Assembly: GCA_029261135.1 (NCBI GenBank)
Contig: JAJDBX010000045.1
Location: 1 to 64,000, forward strand
Reading direction: 5' to 3'
DNA: 64,000 nt
Source: Nitrospirota bacterium
Lineage (GTDB): Bacteria > Nitrospirota > Nitrospiria > SBBL01 > JAADHI01
Below the pieces are notes generated by a model. It saw nothing but the letters and a program-made list of their open reading frames with translations, was not told where the DNA came from and did no database searches. A program made the translations under genes and the position numbers. The stretch's first letter is position 1. Every line of letters begins with the position of its first letter. This document shows, one piece after another, positions 1,013 through 43,970 of the stretch.

Positions 1013-1167
1013 AAGTAAGTATATAGTTTCTGGATAGTAACGAATCGAATTCAAAATATCAATTCTCATATTGCAATTTTCTCGAATTTTCCTTAGTATC
1101 CTGGCCAATTCCTTCCGGATAACACACTAAATGTAATGTTATCTAGAAAAACGAGATAAGTACGGAT
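1013..1167 (-). other. attI-like segment 1, adjoining the integrase remnant
   Basis: This non-coding segment immediately precedes the start of the integron integrase pseudogene, where attI lies in integrons. Its two ends are nearly identical to 27665-27828: the TTTCTGGATAGTAACGAATC block at one end, and a TTATC(T/C)AGAAAAAC(G/A)AGATAAGTACGG block at the other, the latter holding the TTATCT...AGATAA inverted repeat. The middle is diverged. Several copies of a TATCCAGAAA/TATCTAGAAA motif in both orientations could be integrase-binding repeats. On the minus strand the outer edge reads ACTTGATGGCC, a degenerate form of the ACTTGTTGGGCC junction at the second site. Confidence 0.55.
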
Positions 1168-1638
1168 ATGATCTTATCAGTCGAAGAATTGAAAGTATTC
1201 GATGTCGTGTTGACCAAAAACAACATCGACGAGAAATACCACGCTCCTTTCAAAAAATGGCTGAAGTATTAGTTAGACTTCTGTAAAAAGTACCAGCACT
1301 CCATAACCAAAAAAAATAGTCTCCCACTTATTTATTAATAAATTAAAAGATAAACATCAAACGACAATACAGCAACAACAAGCAAGCAGTGTAATATCGC
1401 TTTATCTTAGGCAAATTCAAGCTCAGTCTAACAGACAAAAAAGACCGTGGCGCAGCAAAATGCCGAAGATTGGGACAAGGCCCGTGATGACTTAAAGGCC
1501 GAAATCGCTCTCAGACATTATTCCCCAAAAACCTTGCGCAGCTATAAAAATTGGGTCATAAAATTTCAAGGATTCAACCGCAACAAAACCATTAAAAATT
1601 TAACCCTGAAAGAAGCAAAAAGCCCACTCGACTTTTAA
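1168..1638 (+). pseudogene. intI: Integron integrase (tyrosine recombinase) remnant, N-terminal half
   Basis: Three reading frames together give the N-terminal part of a chromosomal-type integron integrase. From ATG 1168 come HAPFKKWLKY, an in-frame TAG, and LDFCKKYQHS. A shifted frame gives LFINKLKDKHQ and SSVISLYLRQIQ. A further shift, from about 1447, gives DDLKAEIALRHYSPKTLRSY and WVIKFQGF, the SAM-like core-binding domain characteristic of IntI/Xer proteins. The gene then ends at TAA 1636-1638. The whole catalytic domain (Arg, His-x-x-Arg, Tyr) is missing. With one nonsense codon, two frameshifts and a lost C-terminus, it cannot be active. It is divergent from the SRPBCC gene, the standard integron arrangement. 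Family assignment comes from motif recognition only. Confidence 0.75.
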
Positions 1639-1647
1639 AACGCCCAT

Positions 1648-1725
1648 ATGTCTAAACCCGAACTCATTGCTGTAATCCAAAACAACACGGCCTTCGCCAG
1701 TTTGTCTGCCAGAGATAATTTTTAA
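1648..1725 (+). pseudogene. Decayed fragment of the midA 5' end
   Basis: ATG 1648 opens a frame reading MSKPELIAVIQNN, against MSKPELVSAIQNE at the start of the intact midA gene at 2324. The first 18 nucleotides differ at one position. Similarity then fades through GCCTTCGCC, and the frame closes at TAA. It lies directly behind the broken integrase. I read it as a partial duplicate of midA left by a rearrangement that joined the integron end to this locus, with the DUF302 gene now between the two copies. Confidence 0.65.
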
Positions 1726-1759
1726 CAACCGGACTTTAAAATTTTTTAATCGCAGATCA

Positions 1760-2146
1760 TTATAAATTTTCTATCACCTTCCGTAATTTGGATTGGACCT
1801 GATCAGCGATATCCTTTAATGCCGGATTTTCAATCGACTGCATTGAAGCAATCGGATCTACCGCAGAGACTTCAACTTCCCCCGCCACTGTCTCTTGAAC
1901 AATGACATTACAGGGCAACATTGTTCCAATGCGGCTTTCTGCTTGAAGGGCCTTATAGGCATATGAAGGATTACAAGCCCCCAAAATCTTGTATTTCCTA
2001 AAATCGACATCAAGTTTTTTCTTCAAAGTCGCTTGAACATCAATTTCAGTCAGCACACCAAAACCTTCTTTTTTCAGCGCTTCAATTACTTGGTGTATTG
2101 CATCATCAAATGTCATATCTACAATTTTATTAAAACTATACTGCAT
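1760..2146 (-). CDS. DUF302 family protein
   Basis: This is a 128-residue DUF302 protein. The domain spans nearly the whole length: FNKIVDMTFDDAIHQVIEAL at the start, then LTEIDVQATLKKKL, the typical YKILGACNPSYAYKAL block, and LPCNVIVQE. DUF302 proteins are small soluble proteins of unresolved function, often seen beside redox or metal genes. I start at ATG 2146 because AAAGGAG lies just upstream; a longer frame begins 17 residues earlier without such a site. It is divergent from midA, leaving about 180 bp between the two starts for both promoters. Confidence 0.85.
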   Translation of the reverse strand: MQYSFNKIVDMTFDDAIHQVIEALKKEGFGVLTEIDVQATLKKKLDVDFRKYKILGACNPSYAYKALQAESRIGTMLPCNVIVQETVAGEVEVSAVDPIASMQSIENPALKDIADQVQSKLRKVIENL

Positions 2147-2323
2147 CACTTTTTCTCCTTTGATTTTAAATTTTAAACAATGGGAAGGATAACCCACAAA
2201 GCAGCCTTGAACAATATTTCAAGTCATAAATATCACTCCAAATATTGATAATCAATTGGAATTCGCCTAGTATTCTACCGATTACCCTTTGAAGCACCTC
2301 AAAAAGATTAGGGAAAACACCCC

Positions 2324-3463
2324 ATGTCAAAACCCGAACTCGTCTCTGCCATTCAAAACGAAATCGCCCAAAACGGCCCCATCCCCTTTGCCCGTTTTAT
2401 GGAATCCGCACTTTATCACCCAGAATATGGTTACTATTCTTCTCCCGGAGAAAAGATCGGCTGGGAGGGTGATTTTTATACAAGCAGTTCCGTCCACCCC
2501 ATTTTTGGGGAACTCTTGGCAAAACAGCTCCTACAGATGGGCGAAATACTGGGCGACAAAACGTTTACGATTGTTGAAGCCGGTGCCGGTTTAGGCACGC
2601 TTTGCAGGGATATCCTCAATACCATTCAAAAAGAAAATGTCGATCTTTTTGAGCAATGCAGCTATGTCATTGTTGAAAAAAGTGTCTTTTTAAAAGAGAA
2701 ACAACAGGCCTTGCTCTCCCCGATTTTCCCCAAACAGCTTTCTTGGGAAGCTGAAATTCCCCAAGGGCTCGTCGGCATCGTGCTTTCAAATGAACTTTTG
2801 GACGCCCTGCCTGTTCACCGGCTTCGAGTTGAAAAAGAAGCCATTCAAGAAATTTATGTGGACTGGAAAGACAATACATTTATAGAGGTATTAAGAGCGC
2901 CCTCCACAGCGAAACTCACTGAGTACTTAAAACGACTGAACATTTCTCTGGATAAACCCCTCGAGTTGGAAATCAACCTGCAAGCGCTAGATTGGCTGAC
3001 CTCCGTCGGCTTAGCCCTTTCTTCAGGCTTCGTGATCACCATTGATTATGGTTATCCAGCAGCAGATCTTTACACCTCGCGAAGACCCAAGGGCACCTTC
3101 CTTTGTTATCACCAACACAAAACCAGTGAAAACCCCTATGAACACATCGGAGAGCAAGACATGACCACGCATGTTGATTTTACGTCCGTGGCGTATTGTG
3201 GGAAATCGGTCGGACTCAACACGATTGGCTTTACCGACCAAATGCATTTTTTGATGGGCTTGGGTATCGCACAGCGTATGGAAGGCCCTGGCGCGAAGAT
3301 GCATGAATCAGAAGAAGCTAAAAAAGAATTTCTGGCGATGAAACAATTGATGAACCCTGCCGACATGGGAAAAACATTTAAAGTCTTGATACAAGAGAAA
3401 GGTATTTCTGGCGATTACAAATTGGACGGGCTTCAGTTTAAATCACTGAACACACTGGAATAA
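2324..3463 (+). CDS. midA: SAM-dependent methyltransferase, MidA/NDUFAF7 family
   Basis: This 379-residue class I methyltransferase belongs to the MidA (DUF185) family, whose eukaryotic member NDUFAF7 methylates an arginine in a respiratory complex I subunit. Visible hallmarks are the early PIPFARFMESALYHPEYGYY block, the SAM-binding VEAGAGLGTL loop near residue 87, the family signature LSNELLDALPVHRL, and ITIDYGYP further on. Length is normal for the family. The bacterial substrate is not established, and complex I subunits are not encoded nearby. The 5' end has a decayed partial copy at 1648. The gene is convergent with the large membrane protein that follows. Confidence 0.9.
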   Translation: MSKPELVSAIQNEIAQNGPIPFARFMESALYHPEYGYYSSPGEKIGWEGDFYTSSSVHPIFGELLAKQLLQMGEILGDKTFTIVEAGAGLGTLCRDILNTIQKENVDLFEQCSYVIVEKSVFLKEKQQALLSPIFPKQLSWEAEIPQGLVGIVLSNELLDALPVHRLRVEKEAIQEIYVDWKDNTFIEVLRAPSTAKLTEYLKRLNISLDKPLELEINLQALDWLTSVGLALSSGFVITIDYGYPAADLYTSRRPKGTFLCYHQHKTSENPYEHIGEQDMTTHVDFTSVAYCGKSVGLNTIGFTDQMHFLMGLGIAQRMEGPGAKMHESEEAKKEFLAMKQLMNPADMGKTFKVLIQEKGISGDYKLDGLQFKSLNTLE

Positions 3464-3559
3464 GTAATCCGCGCCGCAAGCGGACGGGGGGATTAAACCC
3501 ACGCTTCGCAATAAAGACAAAATCGACCTTCTCCCCCGTTTCATCGCCATGATTTCAAT

Positions 3560-6500
3560 CTAACTTTGAGATGAGTCCCGAAGTAAGTCAGCATGTTTTT
3601 TCGCTTCAATCACCCGAATATCGCCTTCATCTAAGATATTGTTCTTCAGAAAAAACTGAAAGGCCTTTGCCGCATTTTCAGGATCTTCCAATTCCATATG
3701 GGAAAGGCCGAGATAGTAATACATCATGCTACCGGGTGCTTGACGGCCTAATTTCTCGATACCTTGATTGAGGTTTGTGACAGCGTCCTCGTAGCGGCCC
3801 AACAAATAAAGACCGGCGCCTCCATAATTATTTTTTAAAGGCTCGGAAACCATTTGTTCAAAAATGAGCGCCATACGTTGCTCTTCCGGGATTTGCACAC
3901 CAACGCGACGTCGCCACTCAACATCCTTCCAGTAGGGCAGCAATTGAAATTTTTGGGGGTCAATTTCCAATGCCTTGCGCGAATCATTTAACCCCAAGAT
4001 AAACGCACCCAAGGCACGTTTGGCTTCCCTCTCTTTACCCTGCTTATCCAGAACTTGGCTTTCATAATAATGACTAAAGGGGGCAGAGAAAATGGACCCT
4101 TTTTTAAGGTAGGCTAAAGCCCTCTCATATTCCTCCTTAAAGTACAAATCAACGCCCTTATAATAGGACGCGGCCAAGCCCACCTTTGTTTCATCTTCGA
4201 TTTTTTCAAGAAAAGTCGATGCTTTTTTATAGGCTCCCTGCGATTGGTAAAATTTTGCAAGGCTGAGCAATGTCTTTTGGTGAAGCGGTTCAGCGGACAA
4301 TGCCCGATGCCATGCACGCTCGGCTTCTCGACGATTTCCATCCTTAAATTGTGCGCGGCCCCAGAGCCACTCCCCTTCCGCATCGGGATGAAGACCTAAA
4401 CCTTGTTGGATCATCTCACCCGCTTCTTTGTTTTTTTGCATTCTGAAAAAACCTTCGGCAATTTGATAATAGCCTGCAGCCTTTACCGCATCCGATTCAT
4501 CGCCTTGAAAGAGGTAGCTGTCTCCTGCAGAAGCGGCCCCTTGCATTTCGGCGATATGAACCGACATCGTATCTTCAAAAAGCGATTTCGGGGTTTGGAA
4601 TTCAACCAAGGTAAAGTCGTCTGTATTTAAAGTCGCATCCCCCACGAAATGATCGATTTCATTTGGCCCCAACATAAAATGGGCCCAAATGTCATAGACC
4701 GAATAAACATCCGCACGCGACAAATCATTTGCCACAGCAGGGTCAGAAATACGGCGGGTAATTTCGTCCCGGTCTACCTTAAAAGGGGTTTCTGATCCGA
4801 GCATAATTAAATCACCCGCATCGGTGAAAAAGATCATCACTTCATCAAAAACAGAATGAAAGGTTTTAATGACCGATTTGAGCTCCGTTGATCGAATCCC
4901 ATAAAAATGAATCCATTGCGAAAAGATGCCGCCAGCACTCAGATGTTCCTTTCCGAGTTGGAAAAACTCCTGCGTAAAAAGTTTGGCTGAGCCGCTTCGC
5001 CAGGGATGAGAAGGTTCTGACACGATAACATCATATTTTTCATCTGTACGGAGCAAATAATTTCGCGCGTCGTCCTCTGCCAAAGAAACACGCGGATCAT
5101 CCAAAACGTTGTGGCTGAAGGGATCAAAAAAGCGCGAGCCTTCAATCACCGCCGGTTCAAGCTCCAAGGTGATCAATTTTTCGATCGGGTGCATAATCAT
5201 CGATCCGGTCGTAATGCCACTGCCATGACCAATCAACATCACATTTTTGGGATCATCCGCCAAAAGCATGGGCAAGTGGGCCACCAGCAATTGTGTTTTC
5301 ATATCCCCTGTGGTTGAAGCATTCGGCTTCCCGTCAATGGCCAAAGTGAGGTGGGGATCTTTTGCCAGGGTTTGATGCTGAACGACAGTCACCGTCGCAG
5401 AAATCCCCTCTTCATAATAAAGCAGGTTGAGTTTGGCCTGTTGCCCAAAAAGCTCACTCGACATCATGAGCGGATTCCAGGTCGGAGCGGAAAATAGCAT
5501 GATAAATAGAAAAACAAACACTCCGCCCGTCGCCCAATTTTTTCGACCGGCCAGAACGGGTGATTGATGGATTTCTCTTTTTGTAAAAGCAAACCAAAGC
5601 ATCAGGGCCAAGAAAGTGTTGATCACAATAGCAATATGCAGACTCTTCTGAATCCCAAAGGAGGGCAAGAGAATAAAACCAACTGTAAAAGAACCAAAAA
5701 TCGTCCCGACGGTGTTCACCGCATAAGCGCGACCCACAATCGCACCGAGGGGCCGGATTTCTGCCTTTTCTCTTGAAGTCATAATATGGATCACCAGGGG
5801 GAAGACCCCTCCCATAAGGATGGTCGATCCCATCATGACTGCTCCGGCGATAACAAACTTCGTGACGGCACGCACTTTACTCCAGGTGTGCAGAACACCC
5901 ATGATATCCAAAAAAAATGTGGGCAATAAGGGAAAGACAAACTCTCCTCCAAAAGCAAAGAGGGCAATCCCCGCTTGAACCCCTGTGAGCAGGAGAAGCG
6001 GCCTTGCAAAACGTTTTAAGAGTAAAGAAAAAATAAAACTGCCTAGCGCCAAACCGAGCAGGTATGTCGAAAGCATCGTTGCGTAGGAGTAAACCGTTGA
6101 ACCTAAAATTAAAGTCAGGATACGCGTCCAGACCACCTCGTAAATCATCGCAGAAAAACCAGAAATCGCAAAAACCATCAGAAGCACTTGTGTGAGACCT
6201 TTTTCTTCCCGGCTTAGGCGTAATGCTTCTTGAGAAATTTTTACTTTATTCTTCGGAGAGCGACCTGATTGAGTCGTTTCTCTTACAGGCAGTGCTTCGC
6301 GTTTTTCGCCTCGTCCCAGCCAGATCGCCAAGGCCGCAATCACGCCGTTGAGTGCTGCGGCCAATAAAGTGGTTTTTTGAAGACCCAGCGTCGGCAACAG
6401 AAAAAATCCCGCAGAAAGCACACCCATAACCGCACCAAAGGTGTTAAAAGCGTAGAGCAGTCCTATCCCTTTTCCGACACTCTCTCTGTTTTTATAACGT

Positions 6501-6910: not shown

Positions 6911-7009
6911 AGGGGCGTATCTTAGAGGAATCGCTGCACAATCTCAATGAGATTCATTGATCAACAGCTTGATTTACTTTAAAGCGATTGCCTTTGCTTC
7001 AAGGCAGGG

Positions 7010-24839: not shown

Positions 24840-25603
24840 ATGCCTAAAAAACCAAATTTTAATGTGACGTGGCTTGAAAGTTTACTTAAAAGTCCAAACT
24901 TTGAAATACAAGATGCACTGGATAGCACCCCCTAAAGCGCACATTATAATTCCCTCTTTACGAAAAAAAATCATCGCTCATTATAAAGACATTCTACAAG
25001 AGAACCTCGACAGTTTTTGTAGAAAAGTAGAAGTCCCATTTTGCTTCGACCATTTTGGTCTTGTTATTGCGTTTTCCAATCCTATGGAATTGATATTACA
25101 CAATGAAAAAATGGAAATTGATGAGGGATTGCGGACCTTAATCGCAGCGGTCGGCCCTGTTGTGATAAAAAATGTGTATCTGGACAAAACAAGTCGTGAA
25201 CTGGGGCATCGAAATCGTTTTCCGAATTTAAACTTCCACGTGGATCGAAGTGTCGGACAACGTGAAATTTATTCGATGTATACATGTAACCCATTTGATG
25301 AAGAACAACAGCATCCACGCCCATCCTCAACATTGTTTATTGCAAATATTGTGGGCTATTTGCAAGCAGTCAAAGAAAACCGCTTAAATCCGAGTAAAGA
25401 CAAAGGGGTCGGGCACACACACACTATTCTCTAATGAAGTCATAAAGGATGTCCGGGATGTTCTCTGTGTCGAACACCCCTGGGACGCGCCAAAGGGTGT
25501 TGGAGAAATATCGATGTTAGATAATTCCACTATGCTGCATGCCAGTTTCTATCGCGGAATAGATCCAAACAGCTACAAAATCGGCGTCCGATATTTGGCC
25601 TAG
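24840..25603 (+). pseudogene. Frameshifted gene of unknown function with an HxD motif
   Basis: Three consecutive frames join into one protein of about 250 residues. ATG 24840 gives MPKKPNFNVTWLESLL and ends after a C5 run near 24930. A second frame (to 25434) gives PSLRKKIIAHYKDI, FPNLNFHVDRSVGQ and SSTLFIANIVGYLQAV. A third, after a (CA)n tract near 25415, gives LFSNEVIKDV, EHPWDAPKGVGE, MLDNSTMLHASFYRG and YKIGVRYLA. Both shifts fall in slippage-prone tracts, so they may be true mutations, phase-variable sites or assembly errors. The HVD pair followed by LHASFYR is compatible with a non-haem iron dioxygenase fold, but I do not recognise the family with confidence. Confidence 0.65.
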
Positions 25604-25957
25604 GGGGCGTTCTCAATTAACTGGGAGAGTGCATTTTCTAGGGATTTTCTATTCTGACAAGGCAGTTTTTGTACGTAATGCCAACCATTGCAAAGAAAAA
25701 CTAAGGCAGTCAGGGGTATCCATGGCAAGGCACCCAAAAGATCTCGTCACCAAGACTCGTGGAGTCCAGCAATTCATCAAGACGAAGAGTATCGCCATCC
25801 TCCTCCGAGATCCAACTTTCGGCACTATCCCGCCCCCAGCCAGAAATACGCCAGAATTCTGGCCTTTCGCATCTTTCTTTTTTGGTTCAGGGCTAAGGTC
25901 GGTGGTAAGCACCACACATCACAAAGGTGCTTACAAAAACCGGTTTAATGACTAGAG
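25604..25957. other. Intergenic stretch without a recognisable gene
   Basis: No convincing gene is seen between the frameshifted gene and the cold-shock gene. Overlapping open frames at 25629-25955 in different phases lack a good ribosome site or any recognisable domain, and their amino-acid composition looks accidental. Confidence 0.5.
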
Positions 25958-26164
25958 TTAGACTGGCACCACCTTATTAGCGCACGGCCCTTTTTGGCCT
26001 TCCCCAACTTCATACTCCACTTTCTGACCATCACTCAGGGTTGCATAGCCACCGTCAGCTTGGATTTCAGAATGATGAACAAACAGATCCTTGCCACCAT
26101 CATCTGGAGCAATGAAACCAAAACCTTTATCCGCGTTGAACCACTTTACTGTACCTGTACTCAT
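25958..26164 (-). CDS. Cold-shock domain protein
   Basis: This 68-residue CspA-family protein is a single OB-fold that binds single-stranded RNA and DNA. Both nucleic-acid motifs are present: KGFGFI (RNP1) and DLFVHHS (RNP2), with the opening [11 protein letters not shown]. The 350 bp upstream (26165-26515) holds no recognisable gene and probably includes the promoter and a leader; I could not identify a cold-box. Confidence 0.95.
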
Positions 26165-26515
26165 ACCCTATTCTCCTTTGTGTATTTAATATTCATTGAC
26201 TTCGATTATTTTTCTATGTGTCGCCGGTTGTTACCGCTTTATCGTCGTTTCCTGATATAGCTTGAATGTCCTGTGGCACACTATCGTCTATCCCTGCTTT
26301 TTGCAAACGTTCTCTTCCTTCTTTTTCTTTTTAGAGATTTATTTCTGGCGCTTTTCAAAAGCGTCATTGGATTTAGCGACTCGTATTCTCCTCTACATAT
26401 TCTAGGATTAGAGCCCTTAAAATACGGGATTTCCCAAGCGACTTCACTCTTCATCGCATCGACAATATCCAACGGGTACTGGATCGATAACGGACCTTCA
26501 CCTCAGACACCTTAG

Positions 26516-26622
26516 GTTCAGGATGAAGCGCGCCCTTCAGGGCGTCTGATTCTATCCGTTTGATGGCCAAGCCTTCCCCCGTCCGACGATTTAAATATCC
26601 CGATGCGCTCCTCATCCTGAAC
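26516..26622. repeat. Inverted-repeat element, copy 2 (107 bp)
   Basis: This is the second copy of the element at 882-987. The right arm is identical (CGCTCCTCATCCTGAAC, to 26622). The left arm is GTTCAGGATGAAGCGCG, with one internal base change and a shifted end. The inner CGCCC-TTCA-GGGCG hairpin is conserved, and the interior differs by scattered substitutions. It is followed by the same GC-rich tail, GATGGGCCGCC...GGGCCATC (26623-26647). The sequence just left of the element differs from copy 1, so the element boundary on that side is at GTTCAGG. Confidence 0.8.
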
Positions 26623-26677
26623 GATGGGCCGCCCCAGCTGGGCCATCGTTTACATAACTGGACATTTTTATGTTCTT

Positions 26678-26684
26678 GTTAGGC
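26678..26684 (-). other. attC-type core box downstream of the methyltransferase
   Basis: On the minus strand the sequence reads GCCTAAC, an exact match to the RYYYAAC core that opens integron attC sites (GTTAGGC on the plus strand). It is about 165 nt beyond the stop of the methyltransferase gene and is followed by a small imperfect hairpin (GAACAT-AAAA-ATGTCC) and then by the 107-bp element. The matching GTTRRRY box was not found, so the full extent of the site is unclear. Confidence 0.4.
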
Positions 26685-26848
26685 CGAGTTATTGTCACCT
26701 TATTAAAATTCAAGGTAGTCTCTGTATTAATTTAAAAAATACGACGATTTTTTTTGTTGATATGAATCACATTCAAATATCCGTTGATACCAATTACTCA
26801 CATTTATATATTCAAGAACACTCAAACCTATATTGTAATGTCTAAACA

Positions 26849-27628
26849 TTAGTCTACAATGCTTTTTGAATCCAAAAAGCCTTCAGGGACATCTGACGTT
26901 TTCCATCCTGCTATTGCAAAGTAGTACAAGGGCTCTCCCTCAATTGATAACCTATGTCGATAACGTTCTATGTAATAAACATCAAGATATTTGGAAAATA
27001 TTAATTCCCTAATCATTTTTGAAAAGCCTGATTCATTGCCTATATCGAAGAAGGTATCCTTGATATTAAAGGCCACCCACGCTTTTTTTTTGATAATATT
27101 AAACGCTTCCACAAATGCTTTCGTTGGGATGTCACCGAAGCCAAGTGCGGCAACTGTTACCAAGCAATCACATTGCCACGATACTATTTCTTCCTTTTTA
27201 TCCTTTTCTAACTTTGTGAAATCCTCAACATAATATGCGTCATATATTCCCGGCCTATCTCGAATTGCCGCATCATATGCCTCTGGAATGATATCCACTC
27301 CTATTAAACGAGAAACACCATGTTTTTTTAATTCCTCTCCCATCATTCCATTGCCTGCACCGAAATCCAATATCCTAAGCTCAGAAAAGTTGTTTTGATA
27401 TTGTTTTACGGCGGATTCAAGTATTGATGTTACCTTACCAGGTGAGGTGCATTTTAGGCGGTCATAAAATATTTGTTCATACAAGCCTGGCACTTGAAAT
27501 ATTTCATCGTAGTCGTGGAACTTTATTTTCCTCTTACCACCTGATCCTTGAAGGTAGAAATAAGCTTCGTCTTGGTTGATGTTGGTTAATTCATCCTTCG
27601 GAAATTGCATTCTATGCCTTTTAATCAT
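26849..27628 (-). CDS. Class I SAM-dependent methyltransferase (cassette-like)
   Basis: This 259-residue methyltransferase has a clear SAM-binding loop (LDFGAGNGMMGEEL) at about residues 88-100, an acidic end of strand 2 (IGVDIIPEAYDAA) and CDCLVTVAALGFGD for motif IV. The substrate is unknown. It is preceded by a strong GGAGGG site. Upstream, only about 35 nt away, lies ACTTGTTGGGCC, the edge of attI-like segment 2; downstream is a GCCTAAC core box. This is the layout of a gene cassette inserted at an integron primary site. Base composition is more AT-rich than the neighbouring core genes, suggesting transfer. Confidence 0.85.
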   Translation of the reverse strand: MIKRHRMQFPKDELTNINQDEAYFYLQGSGGKRKIKFHDYDEIFQVPGLYEQIFYDRLKCTSPGKVTSILESAVKQYQNNFSELRILDFGAGNGMMGEELKKHGVSRLIGVDIIPEAYDAAIRDRPGIYDAYYVEDFTKLEKDKKEEIVSWQCDCLVTVAALGFGDIPTKAFVEAFNIIKKKAWVAFNIKDTFFDIGNESGFSKMIRELIFSKYLDVYYIERYRHRLSIEGEPLYYFAIAGWKTSDVPEGFLDSKSIVD

Positions 27629-27664
27629 TCCCTCCTCAATTTAGTTTTTATTTTTATTTGTTGG

Positions 27665-27828
27665 CCCAACAAGTAAATATATCGTTTCTGGATAGTAACG
27701 AATCATGTCCTAATTATCAAACCTCTTCGTTCCTATTTATTGATTTTATCAGTATATCCTTGATGAATCTAAGTGGGATGACATCCCAGTTAGTATCTTA
27801 TCCAGAAAAACAAGATAAGTACGGGTAT
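27665..27828 (-). other. attI-like segment 2 (no integrase beside it)
   Basis: This segment is a duplicate of 1013-1167. Both ends are nearly identical to it: the AAGTAAATATATCGTTTCTGG side and the TTATCCAGAAAAACAAGATA side. The interior differs. On the minus strand the outer edge is ACTTGTTGGGCC; GTTGGGC is an exact GTTRRRY integron crossover box. Homology stops where the integrase start codon would be, and no integrase sequence follows in the 290 bp before groES. The region up to groES otherwise shows nothing recognisable. Confidence 0.55.
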
Positions 27829-37784: not shown

Positions 37785-38261
37785 TCAAGCGGTAAGAAAA
37801 TGATCTTCAAGCTCTTTTAGATAGGTAAATAGTTTCGGATTTTTTTCCTGTACATCATAAAATCTAAAACCAAAAAAAACTTTTTCCCGTTGATCGACCT
37901 TCGTCGCCCAACGGACTTCTGCCAAAATAGACTCCTCTACGACCCTATTTTGAGGCAAGGTGAATTTTAATTTGACGCGAATGACCTCCCCTTTTTGATA
38001 CGGGCAGATCGTATAACCTCCCATCCCATCAATTGAAATATCCCGCACAATAACTTTCGCGGTGATATGGTGACCGCGGGATGTCACATGCGCCGTGGTG
38101 ACAATGGGAATCCTCAAGTAACTTCGGTAGCATTCATCCTCGTTCGAATCGGTTGTTTGTCCGAAACGATCCCTTAATTTCGGAGCCGGGCTCCATTCTT
38201 TTATGGATGCACCTGTGACATTTTCTTTGGAATGACTGAGTTCTTTGAGTCCCTGAGACAT
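37785..38261 (-). CDS. PilZ-domain c-di-GMP receptor
   Basis: This 158-residue protein has a PilZ domain at about residues 45-150. YRSYLRIPIV stands where the RxxxR box should be, VRDISIDGMGGYT matches (D/N)xSxxG, and VFFGFRFYDV ends the barrel. The RxxxR box is weak (only one clear Arg in the loop), so affinity may be reduced. It lies 77 nt behind the lytic transglycosylase on the same strand, downstream of a c-di-GMP riboswitch, so both expression and activity may be tied to c-di-GMP. Confidence 0.85.
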   Translation of the reverse strand: MSQGLKELSHSKENVTGASIKEWSPAPKLRDRFGQTTDSNEDECYRSYLRIPIVTTAHVTSRGHHITAKVIVRDISIDGMGGYTICPYQKGEVIRVKLKFTLPQNRVVEESILAEVRWATKVDQREKVFFGFRFYDVQEKNPKLFTYLKELEDHFLTA

Positions 38262-38338
38262 TGGTTTCCCTCCTAATTTTGAATGAGATTAGAACACTTT
38301 TTTCAATTGCTTGATGGGCTCGATGATGTAGTCACGCA

Positions 38339-39007
38339 TTACATAGTCTGTATTAAAATCCCATCCTGGGAACGATCTAAAGCATCTAGCGACATAAAAT
38401 CTTGATAAGTATTCAAAATACGCCGGGAGTAGCTCTTTGGCAGTTTTTGATCACGTCTTTGCATACTGGCGACCCTGGTCGGGCCATAATTGTAGGCAGT
38501 GAGTGCAATTTCGATTTCACCAAAACGCTTATGGAGGCTGGCCAAGTAGTGCGTGCCCAGTTGGATATTCAGTGCGGGATCATACAAAGTCTTATTTCCA
38601 TCCCAAGGAATATTTTTTTCCTTCGCAAGCGCACGCCCAGTATTGGGTAAGATTTGCATGAGCCCCAGTGCCCCTTTCCGTAATTTTGACCAATTGTAAA
38701 AGGAACTTTCTTTTGCCATCACTGCCATAATGAGTTCCGGATCATAGTCGTAAACCAAGCTTTCAGCATAAATGAGTTCGGCAATGGCGATTTCTTTTTC
38801 TTCAGACAATCCGGTTTGATATTTCTTGAGTATTGAACGAATCTTAATGACTTTCTTTAACTTGGCTTTTTCTAGATATTGTTGCTGTATCTCCTGCAAG
38901 TTGACCTCATCCATCCTGTAAACGAAGGGAGAAACCACAAGAAATAGTATTGAAATCAAAAGAATCCCGACCCTTTTCATCATCCTGATTTGTTTTGGGT
39001 TTATCAT
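38339..39007 (-). CDS. Lytic transglycosylase (SLT/MltE-like)
   Basis: This 222-residue protein has an N-terminal membrane anchor or signal (VGILLISILFLVVSPFVY) and a soluble-lytic-transglycosylase domain. Features are ELIMAVMAKESSFYN, holding the catalytic Glu of the ES motif, KGALGLMQILPNTG, LNIQLGTHYLASLHKRFG, and EIALTAYNYGPTRV. It cleaves peptidoglycan glycan strands in the periplasm. The start at ATG 39007 has AGGAGG 7 nt upstream; a longer frame runs into the riboswitch terminator and is rejected. It is the first gene of a riboswitch-controlled unit with the PilZ gene. Confidence 0.9.
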   Translation of the reverse strand: MINPKQIRMMKRVGILLISILFLVVSPFVYRMDEVNLQEIQQQYLEKAKLKKVIKIRSILKKYQTGLSEEKEIAIAELIYAESLVYDYDPELIMAVMAKESSFYNWSKLRKGALGLMQILPNTGRALAKEKNIPWDGNKTLYDPALNIQLGTHYLASLHKRFGEIEIALTAYNYGPTRVASMQRRDQKLPKSYSRRILNTYQDFMSLDALDRSQDGILIQTM

Positions 39008-39026
39008 TCTTTTGCCTCCTTTTTCC

Positions 39027-39068
39027 AAAAAAAAACCCATCTTTCCGCGATAAGAGAAAGATGGGTTT
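39027..39068 (-). terminator. Intrinsic terminator of the riboswitch
   Basis: On the minus strand AAACCCATCTTTC pairs perfectly with GAAAGATGGGTTT (13 bp, 10-nt loop) and runs into nine T residues. It stands between the aptamer and the AGGAGG of the lytic transglycosylase gene, the standard position for transcriptional riboswitch control. Confidence 0.92.
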
Positions 39069-39077
39069 AAAACAACC

Positions 39078-39165
39078 ATTTCGGCAGCCCCGCTGTCCTA
39101 GGATGGCACACTTGATTGCCTATCCCTAGCACCGGAAGCTTTGCGTCATCACCTTACGGTAATTT
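39078..39165 (-). promoter_or_regulatory. c-di-GMP-I (GEMM) riboswitch aptamer
   Basis: Read on the minus strand, the segment carries the conserved GEMM-I pieces in order: GGTGATGACGCAAAGC, TTCCGG, a CTAGGG...CCTAGG paired arm, then GACAGCGGGGCTGCCGA. GACGCAAAGC and AGCGGGG(C/T)TRCC are the family signatures for the ligand pocket and three-way junction. It is followed directly by a strong terminator and then the lytic transglycosylase. Whether c-di-GMP turns the genes on or off depends on competition between the aptamer and the terminator, which I cannot resolve by eye. A TTGACA sequence lies upstream near 39230. Confidence 0.88.
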
Positions 39166-39450
39166 TGCTCTTATCGTCTAGTTCTATATTTAATATGTCT
39201 GTTCTTCTAAACTTACCAATTATATTGAATTTGTCAAGAGAAGATTGAAGTTAATCACAATACAACAAACTGAGATGGACTTCGTCTGATCTTAGGGAGA
39301 CAGAAGCGCTACCGAGAAACATGTCCTTGTTTATTTCTTCGAGCCCAAAAATACAACCCCAATGCCTCATCTTTAGCCCTGTAATCACAAGCATTTCATA
39401 GTCATGCGGAACCTTTCGAGGTAAACTCTTGTCTAAGAAACAGGGGGAAA

Positions 39451-40233
39451 GTGACAGTACTGATCTTGGTTTCTGGCTTGGCCGTTTATCTTTACCAATA
39501 ATCCAATCCCTTGACGCAAGATGTGATGAAGCCTTTGCCCGATGTGAAGCAGTTGCTTCCCGAACCAAGTATCATCCGGGAAGAGGCGGAACAATAAGAG
39601 AAAAAGCAATTTCAGGCGAAGAAAAAGGAAAACAGTTTGGGAGAGGCCATTGTTTCTGGGGATTAAGTTGCGCTTTCGGGAAAAAGGAAGCATGTGTTCA
39701 ACCCGACAAATTTCGGCATTATTATCATGCTTCTTGTGAGTGAGGAGGTTTGGGTCTCTTCCGGGCAGTAGGGCAGTGTGACCATCTTCGGGTTTTTGAT
39801 GGCCTGTCTCGGCGGCATGGTCATCCATCGTTCTTCCCGGAGTGGTGTCCAGCTATGCCCTTCATCCTCTTTTATGCCCTCATGCTTCTGGGCCGTTCTT
39901 ATTGGTTGGCAGAAGCCCTCGCCATCCCCTTGCACCGTCTTCAAAACGGGGCGCTCCTGCTTTTTTTCTTTTTTTATGATTTCCGATCCAAAAACCACAC
40001 CCAATACTCGTATTGGACGGATAAGCTTTACGCTGCTCGTGGCCCTGGGCGCGGGTTTTATTCAGTTTGTACTGTATCAACCCAATGGCCTGCTCTGCTC
40101 ACTGGTCGTTTTTTCAATGACGACACCGCTAATCGACTGGCTTCTCCCTGGGGGAAAATATGAGTGGACTGCGTCACACCCTTCCGCAAAGGGCGGGAAA
40201 ATGCAATTCAGTTTTTCTCAAAATAATCGCTAA
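39451..40233 (+). pseudogene. RnfD-like membrane protein, decayed
   Basis: The frame from GTG 39451 reads TVLILVSGLAVYLYQ, stop, QDVMKPLPDVKQLLPEPS, stop, KENSLGEAIVSGD, stop, KHVFNPTNFGIIMLL, stop, VTIFGFLMACLGGMVIH. A shifted frame gives YALMLLGRSYWLA and HRLQNGALLLFFFF. A further shift gives MISDPKTTPNTRIGR and LVVFSMTTPLIDWLLPG. HVFNPTNFGI, a MATDP-like MISDP and LTPLID-like blocks are those of RnfD/NqrB-type subunits. The four internal stops (TAA, TAA, TAA, TAG) are each explained by one transition from Gln or Trp, indicating true decay rather than sequencing error. It is followed by a decayed DUF2330 gene. Confidence 0.7.
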
Positions 40234-40244
40234 AGGAGGTCAAT

Positions 40245-41124
40245 ATGAAACGATTTTCAATCTTAAGCATCAGCATTGTCCCCACACTTTTTTTCCGGCG
40301 ATGGCCCTCCCGTTTTGCGGCTTCTATGTCGCAAAGGCCGATACAAAGCTTTTTAACAAGGCCTCTCAAGTCGTGATCGCACGTCATGACAACAAAACCG
40401 TCATTACGATGAGCAATGATTTTAAAGGCAATCCCGAAAACATTTGCGATGGTGATTCCCGTGCCGACAATCTTGGGAAAAAGGCCAAATTCATGTGGGG
40501 GATCGGGCGGTCTTGGATCATCTCGATGCCTATTCTTCGCCACGTCTGGTGGAGTATTTCGATGAAGACACCTGTCGAAAAATGGAGAAACTGGAAGAAT
40601 CAAAATTGGGCGCTTTCAAGGACATGCTGAGATCAATGTCGTCTTCTGCCATGGCGAAGAGAAAGCGCAGTGTGACCATCGAAGCGAAGTATGCCGTGGA
40701 GGAGTATGACATACTGATTCTTTCCGCGAAAGAAAGTGATGGGCTTGAAGGCTGGTTCCTGGAAAACGATTACAAAATACCCGCGGGGGCTTCGGATGTC
40801 CTGGAAGGCGACATCAAACAAGGCATGAAGTATTTTGTCGCCAAGGTCAATTTAAAGGAACAGTCTCGTTTGGGCTTTGAAACCTTGCGGCCTTTGAAAA
40901 TGGCGTTTGAATCGCCCAAATTCATGATGCCCATCCGCTTGGGCATGGTGAATGCCGATGGCACTCAGGAGCTTTTCATCCACACCCTCACGAAAAATGG
41001 TCGTGTGGAAACGACCAATTACCGCACCGTGAAGCTGCCCTCCAATATGGGCCTGCCTGTTTTCATCAAAAAAGAATTTGGCGATTTTTACAAAGCCTTG
41101 TTTGCTCAGCAGGTAAAAAAATAA
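40245..41124 (+). pseudogene. DUF2330 family exported protein, frameshifted
   Basis: It starts at ATG 40245 behind a perfect AAAGGAGG. The protein is spread over frames: MKRFSILSISIVPTLFF, shift at a T7 run, PAMALPFCGFYVAKADTKLF and ASQVVIARHDNKTVITMSND, shift near GAAAACA, FAMVIPVPTIL, shift at an A5 run, then a long frame with VGDRAVLDHLDAYSSPRLVE to FGDFYKALFAQQ. FCGFYVAKAD and the VIPVP block are typical of DUF2330. The final stop comes early; a matching C-terminal piece occurs at 41513-41728. All three shifts are at homopolymers, so assembly error is possible, but the decayed neighbour argues for real loss. Confidence 0.7.
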
Positions 41125-41160
41125 AAAAGGTGAGAAGAGGGGTTACAAGTACGGTCTAGA

Positions 41161-41394
41161 TTATTTTTTAGCAGCCTTTGAAAGCTTTTCTATTTCCTCG
41201 CTCGTCAATCTTCCATCCCTTAACATTTCTTTGTACATGGGTTCTAATTCAGGATTTTCTTTAATGAATTGGCTGAGTCTATTATTTCGAGCGGGTCGAA
41301 TCTGTCTGTCTGGTGATTTAAAACGGATGGTGATAAAGATAATACCCAGGGCAAGTATAAGTATAATGATATTTTTTATCTTTTTTGAATCCAT
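41161..41394 (-). CDS. Small single-pass membrane protein, unknown
   Basis: This 77-residue protein has a lysine-rich start, one membrane helix (NIIIILILALGIIFITIRF) and a charged soluble tail ending LTSEEIEKLSKAAKK. I do not recognise a family. It lies on the opposite strand between the two parts of the DUF2330 gene, so it was probably brought in by the insertion that split that gene. Its AT-rich codon use differs from the flanking remnants. No strong ribosome site is visible upstream. Confidence 0.5.
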   Translation of the reverse strand: MDSKKIKNIIILILALGIIFITIRFKSPDRQIRPARNNRLSQFIKENPELEPMYKEMLRDGRLTSEEIEKLSKAAKK

Positions 41395-41512
41395 TTAAGG
41401 GACGAAACCTTGCGTTAAGGGGCGCCGCAATTTTTTGAGACGTCCCACTGAGCGATAGCGAACAAACCTGACCTGCTTTTTATAAACCGTTTTCATCTTT
41501 AACTCAAGTCCC

Positions 41513-41728
41513 TTGATGAGACAAGCCCTCTATTCAATGGTGCGGAAAATGGGGGACAAGCAAAATTTTTATCTTGAAGCCCGCTATGTACTTCAACATC
41601 CCTGGCAGGGTGATAAAAAATCCGCCGCAGCGGTGTCTTATCGTGAAAATCTGTCAGATCGTCAGGAACAAGAAGCTCAACGGCTGGCGAATTTGACAGC
41701 TTGGCATATTGAAGATATTCGTAAATAG
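41513..41728 (+). pseudogene. C-terminal fragment of the DUF2330 protein
   Basis: The frame gives GDKQNFYLEARYVLQHPW, then QEQEAQRLANLTAWHIEDIR. From memory of the family, DUF2330 proteins end with a block of the form RYVLxHPWxG ... REKEAQxLAxLTGWxxxxIR, and the separate gene at 40245-41124 lacks exactly that ending. I read this as the displaced 3' end of that gene, separated from it by about 390 bp that include a foreign-looking small gene. The roughly 100 residues that should lie between are missing. Confidence 0.55.
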
Positions 41729-41876
41729 TTGGGGATCACCGGCGTGATAAAAAAAAGAAGTGGGATGAGAAACTTTGTGGCTGATTGCTCTATCAGGGAC
41801 GGCAATGCCGACTTGCAGATGTAAGGAGGCATTGCCGTTTTGGAAAAGGCACCTGCTAGCCTTTCTGGGTGACACA

Positions 41877-42016
41877 CCGCTAACACCAGGTGCAACCTGC
41901 TACTCTACCTGAGTCTGCCGCGTCCGCGTCAGCACCGCCGACGTTTTCTCAGAAAGATTGACCCCTTTGTTGGCCAATTTCGTTGTTATTTTAGAGAATT
42001 CTGTTTATTGTTAACG
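41877..42016 (-). other. attC-like site at the edge of the restriction-modification block
   Basis: On the minus strand this 140-bp segment starts CGTTAAC (42016-42010) and ends GTTAGCG (41883-41877), which pair in 6 of 7 positions, as attC outer boxes do. Inside are a CAGGT-GCA-ACCTG hairpin and GC-rich stretches. Length is within the usual attC range (about 57-141 bp). The GTG start of the HTH gene follows at 42018. The site closes off a 1.9-kb block whose other end is attI-like segment 3. Confidence 0.45.
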
Positions 42017-42017
42017 C

Positions 42018-42218
42018 GTGAACAACTATTTTACTACACAGGAAGCTGCGGAATTTTTGGGTGTTACAGCTGCCCGTATCCGTCAATTAATACTTGAAGA
42101 GAGAATTAAGTCTAAAAAAATGGGGCGTGACCACATTATTTCCCAAAGTGAGTTAATTAACTACCAGGAGCAGGGCAAGAAAAAAACTGGCCGACCACCT
42201 AAAAACAACTTGCGCTAG
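42018..42218 (+). CDS. Excisionase/MerR-like helix-turn-helix protein
   Basis: This 66-residue protein has a winged-helix DNA-binding domain (YFTTQEAAEFLGVTAARIRQ, LILEERIKSKKMGRDHII) and an AT-hook-like basic tail (GKKKTGRPPKNN). It is 26 bp upstream of the DNA methyltransferase on the same strand. Small HTH genes of this type often accompany type II restriction-modification systems as controllers. The GTG start at 42018 lies immediately after the attC-like box, with no obvious ribosome site, so translation may be leaderless or start slightly differently. Confidence 0.8.
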   Translation: MNNYFTTQEAAEFLGVTAARIRQLILEERIKSKKMGRDHIISQSELINYQEQGKKKTGRPPKNNLR

Positions 42219-42244
42219 CGTTAGCAATTCACTATTCTATCATC

Positions 42245-43159
42245 ATGCAAGCTAACAACAATTTATTACATCACAATTTTTCAGATAAACCTTTTTCTGA
42301 GCCTACTTCTGACCAGCCTACTCTGGTACTGACTGGCGATACTCGCGAATTAATTAAGACTATTCCGGATAATACCTTTCAGTGCGCCGTTACGTCACCT
42401 CCATATTGGGGTGTAAGGGATTACGGTATTGAAAATCAAATTGGAGCTGAGCCTAATTTGGAAGATTATATCTCCGATTTAGTTTCAGTTTTTTCAGAAC
42501 TTAGAAGAACCCTCAAACCGGATGGCACTTTTTGGCTGAACATTGGAAATACATATACATCAGGCGGCAGAAAATGGCGGCAGGAAGATTCAAAAAATAA
42601 AGGACGTGCCATGTCTTACAGGCCACCAACGCCTGATGGATTAAAAAAGAAAGATCTCATTGGCGTGGCTTGGATGCTTGCGATGGCATGCCAACAAGAG
42701 GGATGGTATCTTAGAAATGATATCATCTGGTATAAACCTAATTGCCAACCTGAAAGTGTTAAAGATAGACTTACGGTCTCCCATGAATATCTGTTTTTGT
42801 TTACAAAATCTGAAAAATATTACTTCGACCAAAAAGCGATTAAAGAACCGACGACAAATGGTAATGGCACAAAAAACAAAAGAACTGTTTGGTCAATAAA
42901 TACAGAACCTTGCCCTGAAGCACATTTCGCCGTTTTTCCGAGAGCACTTGTCAGGCCTTGCTTGCTTGCAGGTAGCAAAATAGACGATCTCGTTTTTGAC
43001 CCCTTTTATGGTGCTGGGACAGTTGGTATCGTTTCGAAAGAACTAGGTAGACGATGTGTCGGTATTGAGATTAACGACGAATATGTAGCCATATCCCAGA
43101 AAAGAACTACCACGATTCAAAACAATATTTTTAATGTGGTACCTCAAACTCCCAAGTAG
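42245..43159 (+). CDS. Type II DNA methyltransferase (N4-cytosine or N6-adenine)
   Basis: This 304-residue enzyme contains the catalytic TSPPYWGVRDYG motif IV (Ser51-Pro-Pro-Tyr54) near the N-terminus and the SAM-binding motif I, FDPFYGAGTVG, followed by GRRCVGIEIND near the C-terminus. This is the circularly permuted beta-class order, in which SPPY usually marks N4-cytosine methylation. HTH gene upstream and a convergent nuclease-like gene downstream, with 29 bp of overlap at the 3' ends, make a complete restriction-modification set. The recognition sequence cannot be deduced. Confidence 0.92.
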   Translation: MQANNNLLHHNFSDKPFSEPTSDQPTLVLTGDTRELIKTIPDNTFQCAVTSPPYWGVRDYGIENQIGAEPNLEDYISDLVSVFSELRRTLKPDGTFWLNIGNTYTSGGRKWRQEDSKNKGRAMSYRPPTPDGLKKKDLIGVAWMLAMACQQEGWYLRNDIIWYKPNCQPESVKDRLTVSHEYLFLFTKSEKYYFDQKAIKEPTTNGNGTKNKRTVWSINTEPCPEAHFAVFPRALVRPCLLAGSKIDDLVFDPFYGAGTVGIVSKELGRRCVGIEINDEYVAISQKRTTTIQNNIFNVVPQTPK

Positions 43160-43904
43160 CATGAACCAAACAATATTTTTTTAGTAAATTTTTTATTTGT
43201 AGTTTTCTCTCACTCCCACCATCGAAGTAAAGCTGAAACATCTCTTCGCCATCTCCGTTACTCACATAACAATAACCCGGCTTCGGAAATTGCCTGCTCT
43301 GCAATTTCATTTCCAGCTTCCCATTAATCGCAGATTGTAATAATTCTTTAGGTATCTCGACCAATTCATATTTCCAATTTGGAGCTTTTTTAAGTGTTCG
43401 CAATGAAAGAATTCTTTCGTAACTCTTCATGTGCTCAAAAAACATATTCCTCAATTCAATTAGATCATCAGTATTGTCTCCCCAGTCTCCCTTGCCTAAT
43501 TCCATAAACTTACTAATCCAAAGTTTATCTTTTTTTATATTTTTATCCGCTTGAGTTTTCAGTGAAACTGGAATGCCATTTATCGATATGTCATGGCCTC
43601 GATTACCCTTGTTTGAGAGTTTTGCAATTTTTCCCTTTATGTTCAATGTCTGCTCAAGAACATATTCAAATTTGTCTTTAGAAAAAGGCTCGATGGAAAA
43701 ACTATGATGAATGCGTAGGGCGTCCCCGAAATTTTCGAGAGAATGTTTGTCAAACAAGTCAGTTTGGCGTATTTCAAACTTAGACTTGCAATCAAAAACC
43801 TTCAATACTTTGTCTAACCAAAATAGTTGTCCATCTGATAATGATGGAATTTTTCTTGTGATTAATTCGATTTTTTTCTTGGTTTCTTCGTTCATAATTC
43901 CCAT
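43131..43904 (-). CDS. Putative type II restriction endonuclease
   Basis: This 257-residue protein has no standard name I can give. GHDISINGIPVSLKTQ (Asp105 to Lys116) resembles a PD-(D/E)XK core, D-x(9-10)-xxK, though the usual acidic residue before Lys is Ser here. Further conserved-looking blocks are ISKFMELGKGDWG, YELVEIPKELL, KPGYCYVSNG and YFDGGSERKLQIKNLL. Its position, convergent with and overlapping the DNA methyltransferase, argues strongly for the nuclease partner. Start ATG 43904; ATG 43895 is an alternative. Its start lies about 20 nt from attI-like segment 3. Confidence 0.75.
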   Translation of the reverse strand: MGIMNEETKKKIELITRKIPSLSDGQLFWLDKVLKVFDCKSKFEIRQTDLFDKHSLENFGDALRIHHSFSIEPFSKDKFEYVLEQTLNIKGKIAKLSNKGNRGHDISINGIPVSLKTQADKNIKKDKLWISKFMELGKGDWGDNTDDLIELRNMFFEHMKSYERILSLRTLKKAPNWKYELVEIPKELLQSAINGKLEMKLQSRQFPKPGYCYVSNGDGEEMFQLYFDGGSERKLQIKNLLKKYCLVHATWEFEVPH

Positions 43905-43923
43905 TTAGTTATATTTTGTGACT

Positions 43924-43970
43924 GGCCAACAAGTTAGTTGGTAGGTTTTTCCGGATAATACCAATCGAGA
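43924..43970 (-). other. attI-like segment 3 (short, diverged)
   Basis: On the minus strand it reads ATTGGTATTATCCGGAAAAA, then CCTACCAACTAACTTGTTGGCC. The other two segments show ATTCGTTACTATCCAGAAAC and (TTACTTGTTGGGCC or TTACTTGATGGCC) at the same spacing. So the ATC-CGGAAA-type motif and the ACTTGTTGG crossover edge are shared, while the distal block with the TTATC...GATAA repeat is not found. It lies just upstream of the restriction-endonuclease start. The rest of the gap to 44226 shows no gene; a weak open frame at 43909-44157 runs through the site. Confidence 0.42.

What the first reader, a model, noticed from the sequence alone, without database searches (positions are those of the whole stretch)
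1013..43970. Three related attI-like sites dispersed across 43 kb, each upstream of an accessory gene
Segments at 1013-1167 and 27665-27828 share near-identical ends, and 43924-43970 shares the core motif and the ACTTGTTGG edge. Each lies within tens of bases of the start of a minus-strand accessory gene or element (SRPBCC/IR element, methyltransferase, restriction enzyme). Only the first retains integrase sequence. Integrons normally have one attI; dispersed copies would make several independent landing sites or mark duplications of an old platform.
Basis: partly seen in the sequence, partly recalled or inferred. Interest (0 to 1): 0.75.

Follow-up and report, generated by a model that had tools for sequence, protein, structure and literature searches.

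The report
Scattered integron docks without their integrase
A draft genome of the bacterial class Nitrospiria holds at least five scattered integron docking sites, four of them with no integrase gene beside them; each likely received its neighbouring gene as a mobile cassette, and bacteria of other phyla that still carry the integrase show the same scatter, so one enzyme would likely load many docks.

Summary
In detail: all three segments are attI sites of integron integrases with a long N-terminal extension. A model built only from sites beside such integrase genes in other records has these segments as its three best hits in the window, in register at the G|TT crossover (E 3e-7, 9e-7, 0.036). 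Segment 1 keeps a broken intI; segments 2 and 3 keep none, and no intact cognate integrase was found in the draft genome. Segment 2 carries a methyltransferase cassette whose 83% identical copy lies behind another attI of this genome, homology starting at the crossover; segment 3 carries a SmaI-type restriction pair. Two more sites lie on contigs C9 and C3. The pattern is wider: 33 genomes holding this integrase family gave 78 attI matches, 62 with G|TT in register, 29 of these with no integrase homology within at least 1.2 kb; cassette-end complements are enriched behind them (6 of 25 versus 16 of 588 swapped controls). Integrons typically have one attI; dispersed integrase-less attI docks look like a new variant. 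How they multiply, and whether an integrase loads them in trans, is inferred.

The parts
1012..1167 (-). attI site 1: Pc-like promoter (TTGATA 1062-1057, TACTAT 1039-1034) and core CCAGAAACTATATACTTACTTG ending at the crossover G (1012)
   Evidence: R2 hit 1012-1038, 26.8 bits, E 3.2e-7; sequence
1168..1707 (+). broken intI of the long N-terminal family: N-terminal part only, stops and frame breaks, no catalytic domain
   Evidence: translation; tblastn with family members; weak TIGR02249 match 1489-1707 with one stop
881..1011 (-). ORF-less cassette consisting of one attC (arms 881-899 and 970-988, 19 nt, fully complementary); 89% identical to that at segment 2
   Evidence: fold -30.7 kcal/mol, z -4.2, 0 of 200 shuffles as stable
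259..880 (-). SRPBCC (Polyketide_cyc2) gene cassette, gene 396-815; starts G|TTAGCC and ends in R'' GGCTAAC (259-265); the rest of its attC looks degenerate
   Evidence: sequence; Pfam PF10604 E 2.3e-12
27666..27828 (-). attI site 2, crossover G at 27670; promoter TTGATA 27720-27715, TACTAT 27697-27692; no intI
   Evidence: R2 hit 27666-27696, E 8.8e-7; hexamers (not above shuffles on their own); no IntI homology in the window except 1168-1707
26648..27669 (-). methyltransferase gene cassette (gene 26849-27628); attC read as R'' GGCCTAAC at 26685-26678 and a short stem ACATAA/TTATGT
   Evidence: 83% identical over 801 bp to the cassette on contig C9, local alignment starting at the base after the crossover; Pfam; sequence; the stem is not better than shuffles (32 of 200 as stable)
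26516..26646 (-). second copy of the ORF-less attC element
   Evidence: 89.4% over 132 bp to segment 1; arms 26516-26533 and 26605-26622, 89% complementary; fold z -1.8, 12 of 200 shuffles as stable
43926..43983 (-). attI site 3 (second attI type), crossover G at 43930; TTGCAG 43983-43978 and TATTAT 43960-43955; no intI
   Evidence: R2 hit 43926-43959, E 0.036, third best in window; relatives in G004 and G007; 78% over 54 bp to the sequence upstream of the frame-broken intI of G001
41969..43929 (-). probable restriction-modification cassette: SmaI-type endonuclease 43131-43904 (-), N4/N6 methylase 42245-43159 (+); R'' TGGCCAAC 41976-41969 complements the cassette start in 8 of 8 bases; rest of the attC unclear
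   Evidence: Pfam SmaI E 7e-83, N6_N4_Mtase E 3.8e-54; PADLOC; R'' match

Best explanation
The three segments are attI attachment sites of the integron-integrase family with a long N-terminal extension, each with one or two gene cassettes behind it that were likely inserted by such an integrase at the G|TT crossover, and two of the three have no integrase gene beside them. Shown: the motif, its orientation and register, the cassette borders at segments 1 and 2, the absence of a detected intact cognate integrase in the assembly (95% complete), and integrase-less sites of the same kind in genomes of other phyla that carry the integrase. Inferred: each attI carries a promoter that would express the first cassette. 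The dispersed copies likely began as the intI-attI end of complete integrons that reached new chromosomal places and then lost intI from the intI side, to different extents, while the attI end stayed usable. Where an integrase survives elsewhere in the cell it would load these docks in trans; in this genome they would be stranded until an integrase returns.
For: R1, built from 9 dispersed copies (6 from this genome, 3 from G007), run over 80 IntI loci: 28 hits at E <= 5, 27 on the strand pointing away from intI; of 24 measured, 22 lie 127-428 nt before the integrase match. R2, built from 19 of those intI-adjacent sites, hits 48 of the 80 loci; all 51 hits (E <= 1) lie upstream of the integrase match and point away (29 of the 48 loci were not used to build it). 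R2 ranks the three segments first to third in the window. The same cassette lies behind two attI sites of this genome, homology starting at the crossover. Exact 8-nt complement of the cassette start within 2.5 kb: 4 of 15 Nitrospiria copies versus 5 of 210 swapped and 0 of 15 reversed controls. In 33 genomes where one search found this integrase: 78 sites in 23 genomes, 62 with G|TT in register: 23 beside IntI, 1 beside a short remnant, 29 in 13 genomes without IntI in at least 1.2 kb, 9 undecidable. Exact complements: 6 of 25 (no IntI) versus 16 of 588; 11 of 19 (with IntI) versus 14 of 330. An ORF of at least 100 aa starts within 60 nt of the crossover at 16 of the 29 integrase-less sites, 0 of 29 on the other side, 143 of 580 random points. 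Loss on the intI side is graded: segment 1 and several other sites keep intI pieces, others about 165, 60 or 36 bp of attI.
Against: No recombination was observed. R2 was built from sites that R1 had found, and R1 contains segments 1 and 2, so their R2 E-values are not independent (segment 3 is in neither model); the position and direction beside intI are the independent part. Segment 3 has a modest E-value and an unclear attC. 11 of 15 Nitrospiria copies and 19 of 25 integrase-less sites elsewhere lack an exact complement; with 7-nt complements the contrast is weaker (6 of 15 versus 26 of 208). The stem of the methyltransferase attC is no better than shuffles. Some R1 hits are not cassette sites: C33 and G003:C5 share the same DUF1456 gene, and C19, C30 and C9b lack the crossover, so part of the motif also occurs as a plain promoter. 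The promoter hexamers alone are no better than shuffles (1 found, 1.7 expected). In Methylobacter (G301) five sites share only about 36 bp and differ from the site at its own intI locus, which fits decay of whole integrons less well. The assembly is a draft; an integrase could be missing from it.
Confidence: 0.77

Rival explanations
1. Integron graveyard only: each site is a relic of a separately acquired integron whose integrase decayed; the sites are no longer used by anything.
For: No intact cognate integrase found in this genome; broken intI at segment 1; left ends of attI copies truncated to different lengths and some copies also without the crossover; one cross-genus pair (86%) more alike than full-length copies within a genome (55-67%).
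Against: The crossover is in register at 62 of 78 sites in genomes that carry this integrase family, 29 of them integrase-less, many with an ORF starting right behind it; relics should lose the right end as often as the left.
Confidence: 0.4
2. attG-type insertion: the integrase put cassettes into chromosomal sequences that merely resemble attI.
For: IntI1 is reported to use genomic attG sites (mentioned in PMC12901181, passages); the Methylobacter sites share only about 36 bp.
Against: In Nitrospiria and the Scalindua lineage homology spans 110-194 bp including the core, with a GGATAACATTACAT...GTTATCC block; matches to R2 this good are not expected several times per genome by chance (E-values).
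Confidence: 0.12
3. A dispersed promoter or intergenic repeat unrelated to integrons.
For: C33 and G003:C5 carry a promoter-like copy before the same DUF1456 gene; C19 and C30 lack the crossover; G004:C97 and G007:C8 (type of segment 3) lack it too and share one downstream gene.
Against: All 51 R2 hits in 80 IntI loci lie upstream of the integrase match, pointing away from it; cassette borders fall on the crossover.
Confidence: 0.03
4. The integrase itself copies attI, by excising circles that carry attI with a cassette (as proposed for delta-attI cassettes) and re-inserting them elsewhere.
For: Delta-attI cassettes exist and move in class 1 and 2 integrons (PMC12901181, passages).
Against: There the attI piece lies behind the gene and is mostly 14-18 nt; here it lies in front and spans 36-194 bp, and I saw no constant G|TT junction at the left border (by eye).
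Confidence: 0.1

Closest known systems
Chromosomal integron (intI + attI + attC array)
   Same: attI with promoter-like hexamers, G|TT crossover, attC-bearing cassettes, intI remnant divergent from attI at segment 1
   Different: several attI sites in one genome, two of the three here without intI, one or two cassettes each instead of one array
CALIN (attC clusters lacking an integrase; IntegronFinder)
   Same: cassettes without an integrase
   Different: here an attI is present at each place and there are only one or two attC sites; IntegronFinder 2.0 does not detect attI outside class 1 and reports CALINs only from two attC sites on by default (PMC9024848, passages)
attG genomic insertion sites of cassettes
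   Same: cassettes outside the integron array
   Different: the site is a conserved attI, homologous over 36-194 bp, not a chance chromosomal target (attG properties partly recalled)
Delta-attI-type gene cassettes (class 1 and 2 integrons)
   Same: extra attI pieces within cassette DNA
   Different: there the piece replaces attC behind the gene (PMC12901181, passages); here attI precedes the gene

Membership tests
Integron | integron integrase gene next to attI | tested here: not met
   broken and truncated at segment 1, absent at segments 2 and 3; so these are attI-cassette units derived from integrons, not complete integrons
Integron | attI site | tested here: met
   R2 from intI-adjacent sites: top three hits in the window; weakest for segment 3
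Integron | gene cassettes with attC | tested here: met
   segments 1 and 2: two attC-like sites each; segment 3 only the R'' complement, rest unclear
Integron | cassette promoter in or near attI | tested here: inconclusive
   hexamers conserved among copies, but alone not above shuffles; no transcription data
Integron | IntI-catalysed recombination at attI | not testable with these tools
   needs a recombination assay
CALIN | two or more attC sites without integrase | tested here: inconclusive
   segments 1 and 2 have two attC-like sites each, segment 3 at most one; IntegronFinder itself was not run
attG site | target not homologous to attI beyond the core | tested here: not met
   70% identity over 168 bp between segments 1 and 2; left block shared with other copies; not shown for segment 3

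The most novel reading that the evidence does not exclude
Distributed integrons: a long-N-terminal IntI family runs not one array but a network of scattered attI docks, each with its own promoter and one or two cassettes (restriction systems, addiction-module parts, SIR2, GmrSD, DAC and the like), loaded in trans by a single integrase in Nitrospirota, Planctomycetota (Scalindua, Brocadiaceae), Desulfobacterota and gammaproteobacterial methanotrophs; every captured gene would be first in line and expressed, which the one-array integron does not allow.
Probability: 0.42. Interest if true: 0.83.

Novelty: new variant of a known kind. Interest (0 to 1): 0.7.

Why it matters
The standard picture is one attI per integron with one promoter, so mainly the first cassettes are expressed. 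If many docks exist, a cell can express many captured genes at once and hold them round the chromosome, and current software (which looks for intI and attC clusters) would largely miss them. It also gives an attI model for a large, poorly described integrase family, which makes attI evolution and loading in trans directly testable.

Tried and rejected
Considered and dropped: a transposable element with fixed ends (left ends differ between copies); recent copying inside this genome for the full-length copies (the pair segment 2 and C19 is an exception); a tRNA explanation of multi-copy hits near 25600-26180 (no tRNA there; a cold-shock-type gene at 25986-26178 is recognised by eye only). Empty-site test: flanks of segments 2 and 3 are not syntenic in the seven relatives G001-G007 searched (sequence compared in four), so no empty site could be shown. 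A hairpin search with long arms found little besides the ORF-less attC; the complement test replaced it. One search used a pattern with a one-base spacing error and is not used as a count; replaced by model R1. Searches had misplaced or uneven copies; redone. R2 over the class: 69 of 269 genomes at E <= 1, no more than chance allows at that level; at E <= 0.01, 17 hits in 12 genomes (2.7 expected). Literature: searches listed no report of dispersed attI sites (one search was swamped by the word attitude); only passages of PMC12901181 and PMC9024848 were read. Rows dropped before counts: of 28 copies located, 17 were looked at for complements first and 15 with a G|TT- or G|AT-type core kept for the count, so that count was not blind; of 78 sites, 16 without an in-register G|TT were left out of the classes; 4 of 29 integrase-less and 4 of 23 IntI-bearing sites with under 500 nt behind the crossover were left out (the undecidable group gave 2 of 9 versus 2 of 70). 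20 of 35 first ORFs were given to Pfam.
Full report
What was given. The window is the first 64 kb of contig C40 of a 3.2-Mb draft genome (77 contigs, 95% complete). A relative that the tools place in the same genus (G001) is 'Nitrospiria bacterium isolate FO_M_Nitrospirota_01.1', so the window is from the Nitrospirota, class Nitrospiria (inferred from that kinship).

The observation. Segments 1 and 2 align over 168 bp at 70% identity and share a 21-nt identical stretch; segment 3 shares TTATCCGGAAA...ACTTG|TTGGCC. On the minus strand each reads: promoter-like hexamers (TTGATA-17-TACTAT at segments 1 and 2; TTGCAG-17-TATTAT at segment 3), then the core, then ACTTG, then the first letters of the neighbouring DNA (ATGGCCC, TTGGGCC, TTGGCCA). 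Segment 1 is followed on its other side by a broken integrase gene, divergent from it: pieces at 1168-1317, 1328-1408 and 1438-1707 in shifting frames with stops, only the N-terminal part. An intact cognate integrase was not found in the assembly: TIGR02249 has no match over its cut-off. Nine of the eleven tyrosine-recombinase places were checked: none reaches the integron-integrase cut-off, and their best local identity to four intact long integrases over 60 residues or more is at most 32%, while those four are 53-79% identical to each other. One of the nine, XerC-like but below that cut-off, lies about 5.5 kb behind the attI on C9.

Are they attI sites? Relatives of the integrase were collected and 80 loci fetched from species genomes (Scalindua, Brocadiaceae, Kuenenia, Desulfobacterota, Nitrospirota, Nitrospinota, Methylobacter and others). 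In 10 of 11 loci checked the integrase is an open frame of 435-503 aa from the first ATG. A sequence-only model of nine dispersed copies, segments 1 and 2 among them (R1), gave 28 hits at E <= 5 over the 80 loci, 27 on the strand that points away from intI; of 24 measured, 22 lie 127-428 nt before the integrase match. R2 was then built from 19 of these intI-adjacent sites; because R1 had chosen them, R2 scores for segments 1 and 2 are not independent, but segment 3 is in neither model. In the window, filters off, the three best of R2's 18 hits are the three segments, in register up to the crossover: 26.8 bits (E 3.2e-7), 25.4 bits (8.8e-7) and 11.0 bits (0.036); the fourth is E 0.33. Over the 80 loci R2 gives 51 hits at E <= 1 in 48 loci, all upstream of the integrase match and pointing away (29 of the 48 loci not used to build it), and no hit at that level elsewhere in 496 kb. 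I take the identity as settled for segments 1 and 2 and likely for segment 3, which also matches three places in G004 and G007 (only one of them with the crossover) and, at 78% over 54 bp, the sequence before the frame-broken intI of G001.

Are the neighbours cassettes? Segment 2: the methyltransferase gene has an 83% identical copy (801 bp) on contig C9 behind another attI; the local alignment starts at the base after the crossover, G|TTGGGCC here and a|TTAGGCC there, where an attC stands before it instead of attI. Its own attC is read from R'' GGCCTAAC, the complement of the C9 version of the cassette start; the stem is weak. Behind it, and directly behind segment 1, lies an ORF-less attC element of 131 bp, 89% identical between the two places, with 19-nt fully complementary arms at segment 1. 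The SRPBCC gene behind segment 1 starts G|TTAGCC and ends in GGCTAAC. Segment 3: SmaI-type endonuclease and DNA methylase, with an exact 8-nt complement of the cassette start at 41969-41976; the rest of that attC is not clear. For 15 Nitrospiria copies the exact complement occurs within 2.5 kb in 4, against 5 of 210 swapped-core and 0 of 15 reversed controls; with 7 nt it is 6 of 15 against 26 of 208. C3 has a one-mismatch complement at the very end of its gene with an attC-like stem.

How many in this genome? Sites with core and crossover: segments 1-3, C9 and C3; IntI homology was found beside segment 1 only. C33, C19, C30 and C9b are partial; C33 and a copy in G003 stand before the same DUF1456 gene, so part of the motif also exists as a plain promoter. 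R1 over 269 genomes of the class matches at E <= 0.01 in 13, most in G007 (11), G000 (7) and G021 (5).

Is it wider? R2 over 35 genomes (33 in which one search found this integrase, plus G000 and G007) hits at E <= 0.01 in 25 of 35; in the 33, 78 sites in 23 genomes (13 in Scalindua rubra, 7 and 7 in two Desulfobacterota, 6 in Scalindua arabica, 5 in a Brocadiaceae genome, 5 in Methylobacter tundripaludum strain OWC-G53F, which is not labelled a MAG). All 78 were fetched. 62 have G|TT in register; 23 of these have at least 250 nt of IntI homology next to them, 1 a short remnant, 29 (in 13 genomes) no IntI homology in at least 1.2 kb, 9 too little flank to tell. Exact complements of the cassette start: 6 of 25 integrase-less sites against 16 of 588 swapped controls; 11 of 19 sites with IntI against 14 of 330; 2 of 9 undecidable ones against 2 of 70. 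An ORF of at least 100 aa starts within 60 nt behind the crossover at 16 of 29 integrase-less sites, against 0 of 29 on the other side and 143 of 580 random points; with ORFs of 45 aa it is 21 of 29, 6 of 29 and 274 of 580. Of 20 first-ORF proteins given to Pfam (17 from these sites, 3 from Nitrospiria), hits include DUF4231/SLATT, PIN, putative addiction-module component (twice), SIR2-like, GmrSD, DAC, CAAX protease, thiopurine methyltransferase, DUF2834 and RNase_T+BRCT; five had none.

How did they scatter? Full-length attI copies: C9 and G007:C55b are 86.0% identical; the other nine pairs, three within this genome among them, 54-67%. Segment 2 and the truncated C19 copy are 85% identical over 67 bp. 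In the Scalindua lineage copies keep about 165 bp (up to the intI start), about 60 bp or less on the intI side, and several keep intI pieces; the right end is the crossover in most, but some lost it. In Methylobacter only about 36 bp are shared. I take this as spread of intI-attI ends with later loss of intI; the vehicle is unknown. This step is inferred.

Compared with what is known. Integrons are described as having typically one attI near the integrase; attI sites are poorly described outside class 1 and IntegronFinder does not detect them; integrase-less cassette clusters are called CALIN, and two CALIN were reported in the phylum Nitrospira (PMC9024848, passages). Delta-attI cassettes carry attI pieces behind the gene (PMC12901181, passages). 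I found no report of dispersed attI docks in searches of an open-licence library, which is not proof of novelty.

Limits. No experiment; draft genomes, where integrases can be missing; segment 3 is the weakest of the three; promoter strength untested; trans action is a proposal.

Noticed in passing
L133, L135, L140, L141, L143, L148, L151, L193, L209, L210, L185: The integrases beside these attI sites are 435-503 aa from the first ATG in 10 of 11 loci checked (L185: 379), against 315 positions of TIGR02249, with a conserved N-terminal block (KWLRYYLDFCxKY...). In three scanned, the main Pfam SAM-like domain begins only at residue 125-162 and PF13495 matches two stretches; the extension may be an extra DNA-binding domain.
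   Followed up: partly
window 41969-43929: A SmaI-type restriction-modification pair with convergent, overlapping genes sits in what looks like one cassette, the methylase on the opposite strand to the attI promoter.
   Followed up: partly
L066 (G007:C55) 2436-3425: One attI copy of G007 is split in two by about 0.8 kb with transposase-like frames (DDE_Tnp_1, DUF4096).
   Followed up: partly
L294 2554-4308: A cassette-like gene behind an integrase-less attI of a Desulfobacterota genome joins a phosphoribosyltransferase-like and a DisA-type diadenylate cyclase domain; it could be a new signalling or defence gene.
   Followed up: no
window 1113-1148; L275-L292: A GGATAACATTACAT...GTTATCC inverted block lies between intI start and Pc in Nitrospiria and recurs in Scalindua-lineage attI sites; perhaps an operator or extra integrase-binding site.
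   Followed up: no
window 39080-39179: c-di-GMP-I riboswitch on the minus strand, directly upstream of the minus-strand ORF 38339-39079.
   Followed up: no
L027 6483-7134 and L129: A promoter-like copy of the attI right end stands before the same DUF1456 gene in G000 (C33) and G003 (C5); attI promoters may have been captured by, or derived from, ordinary genes.
   Followed up: partly
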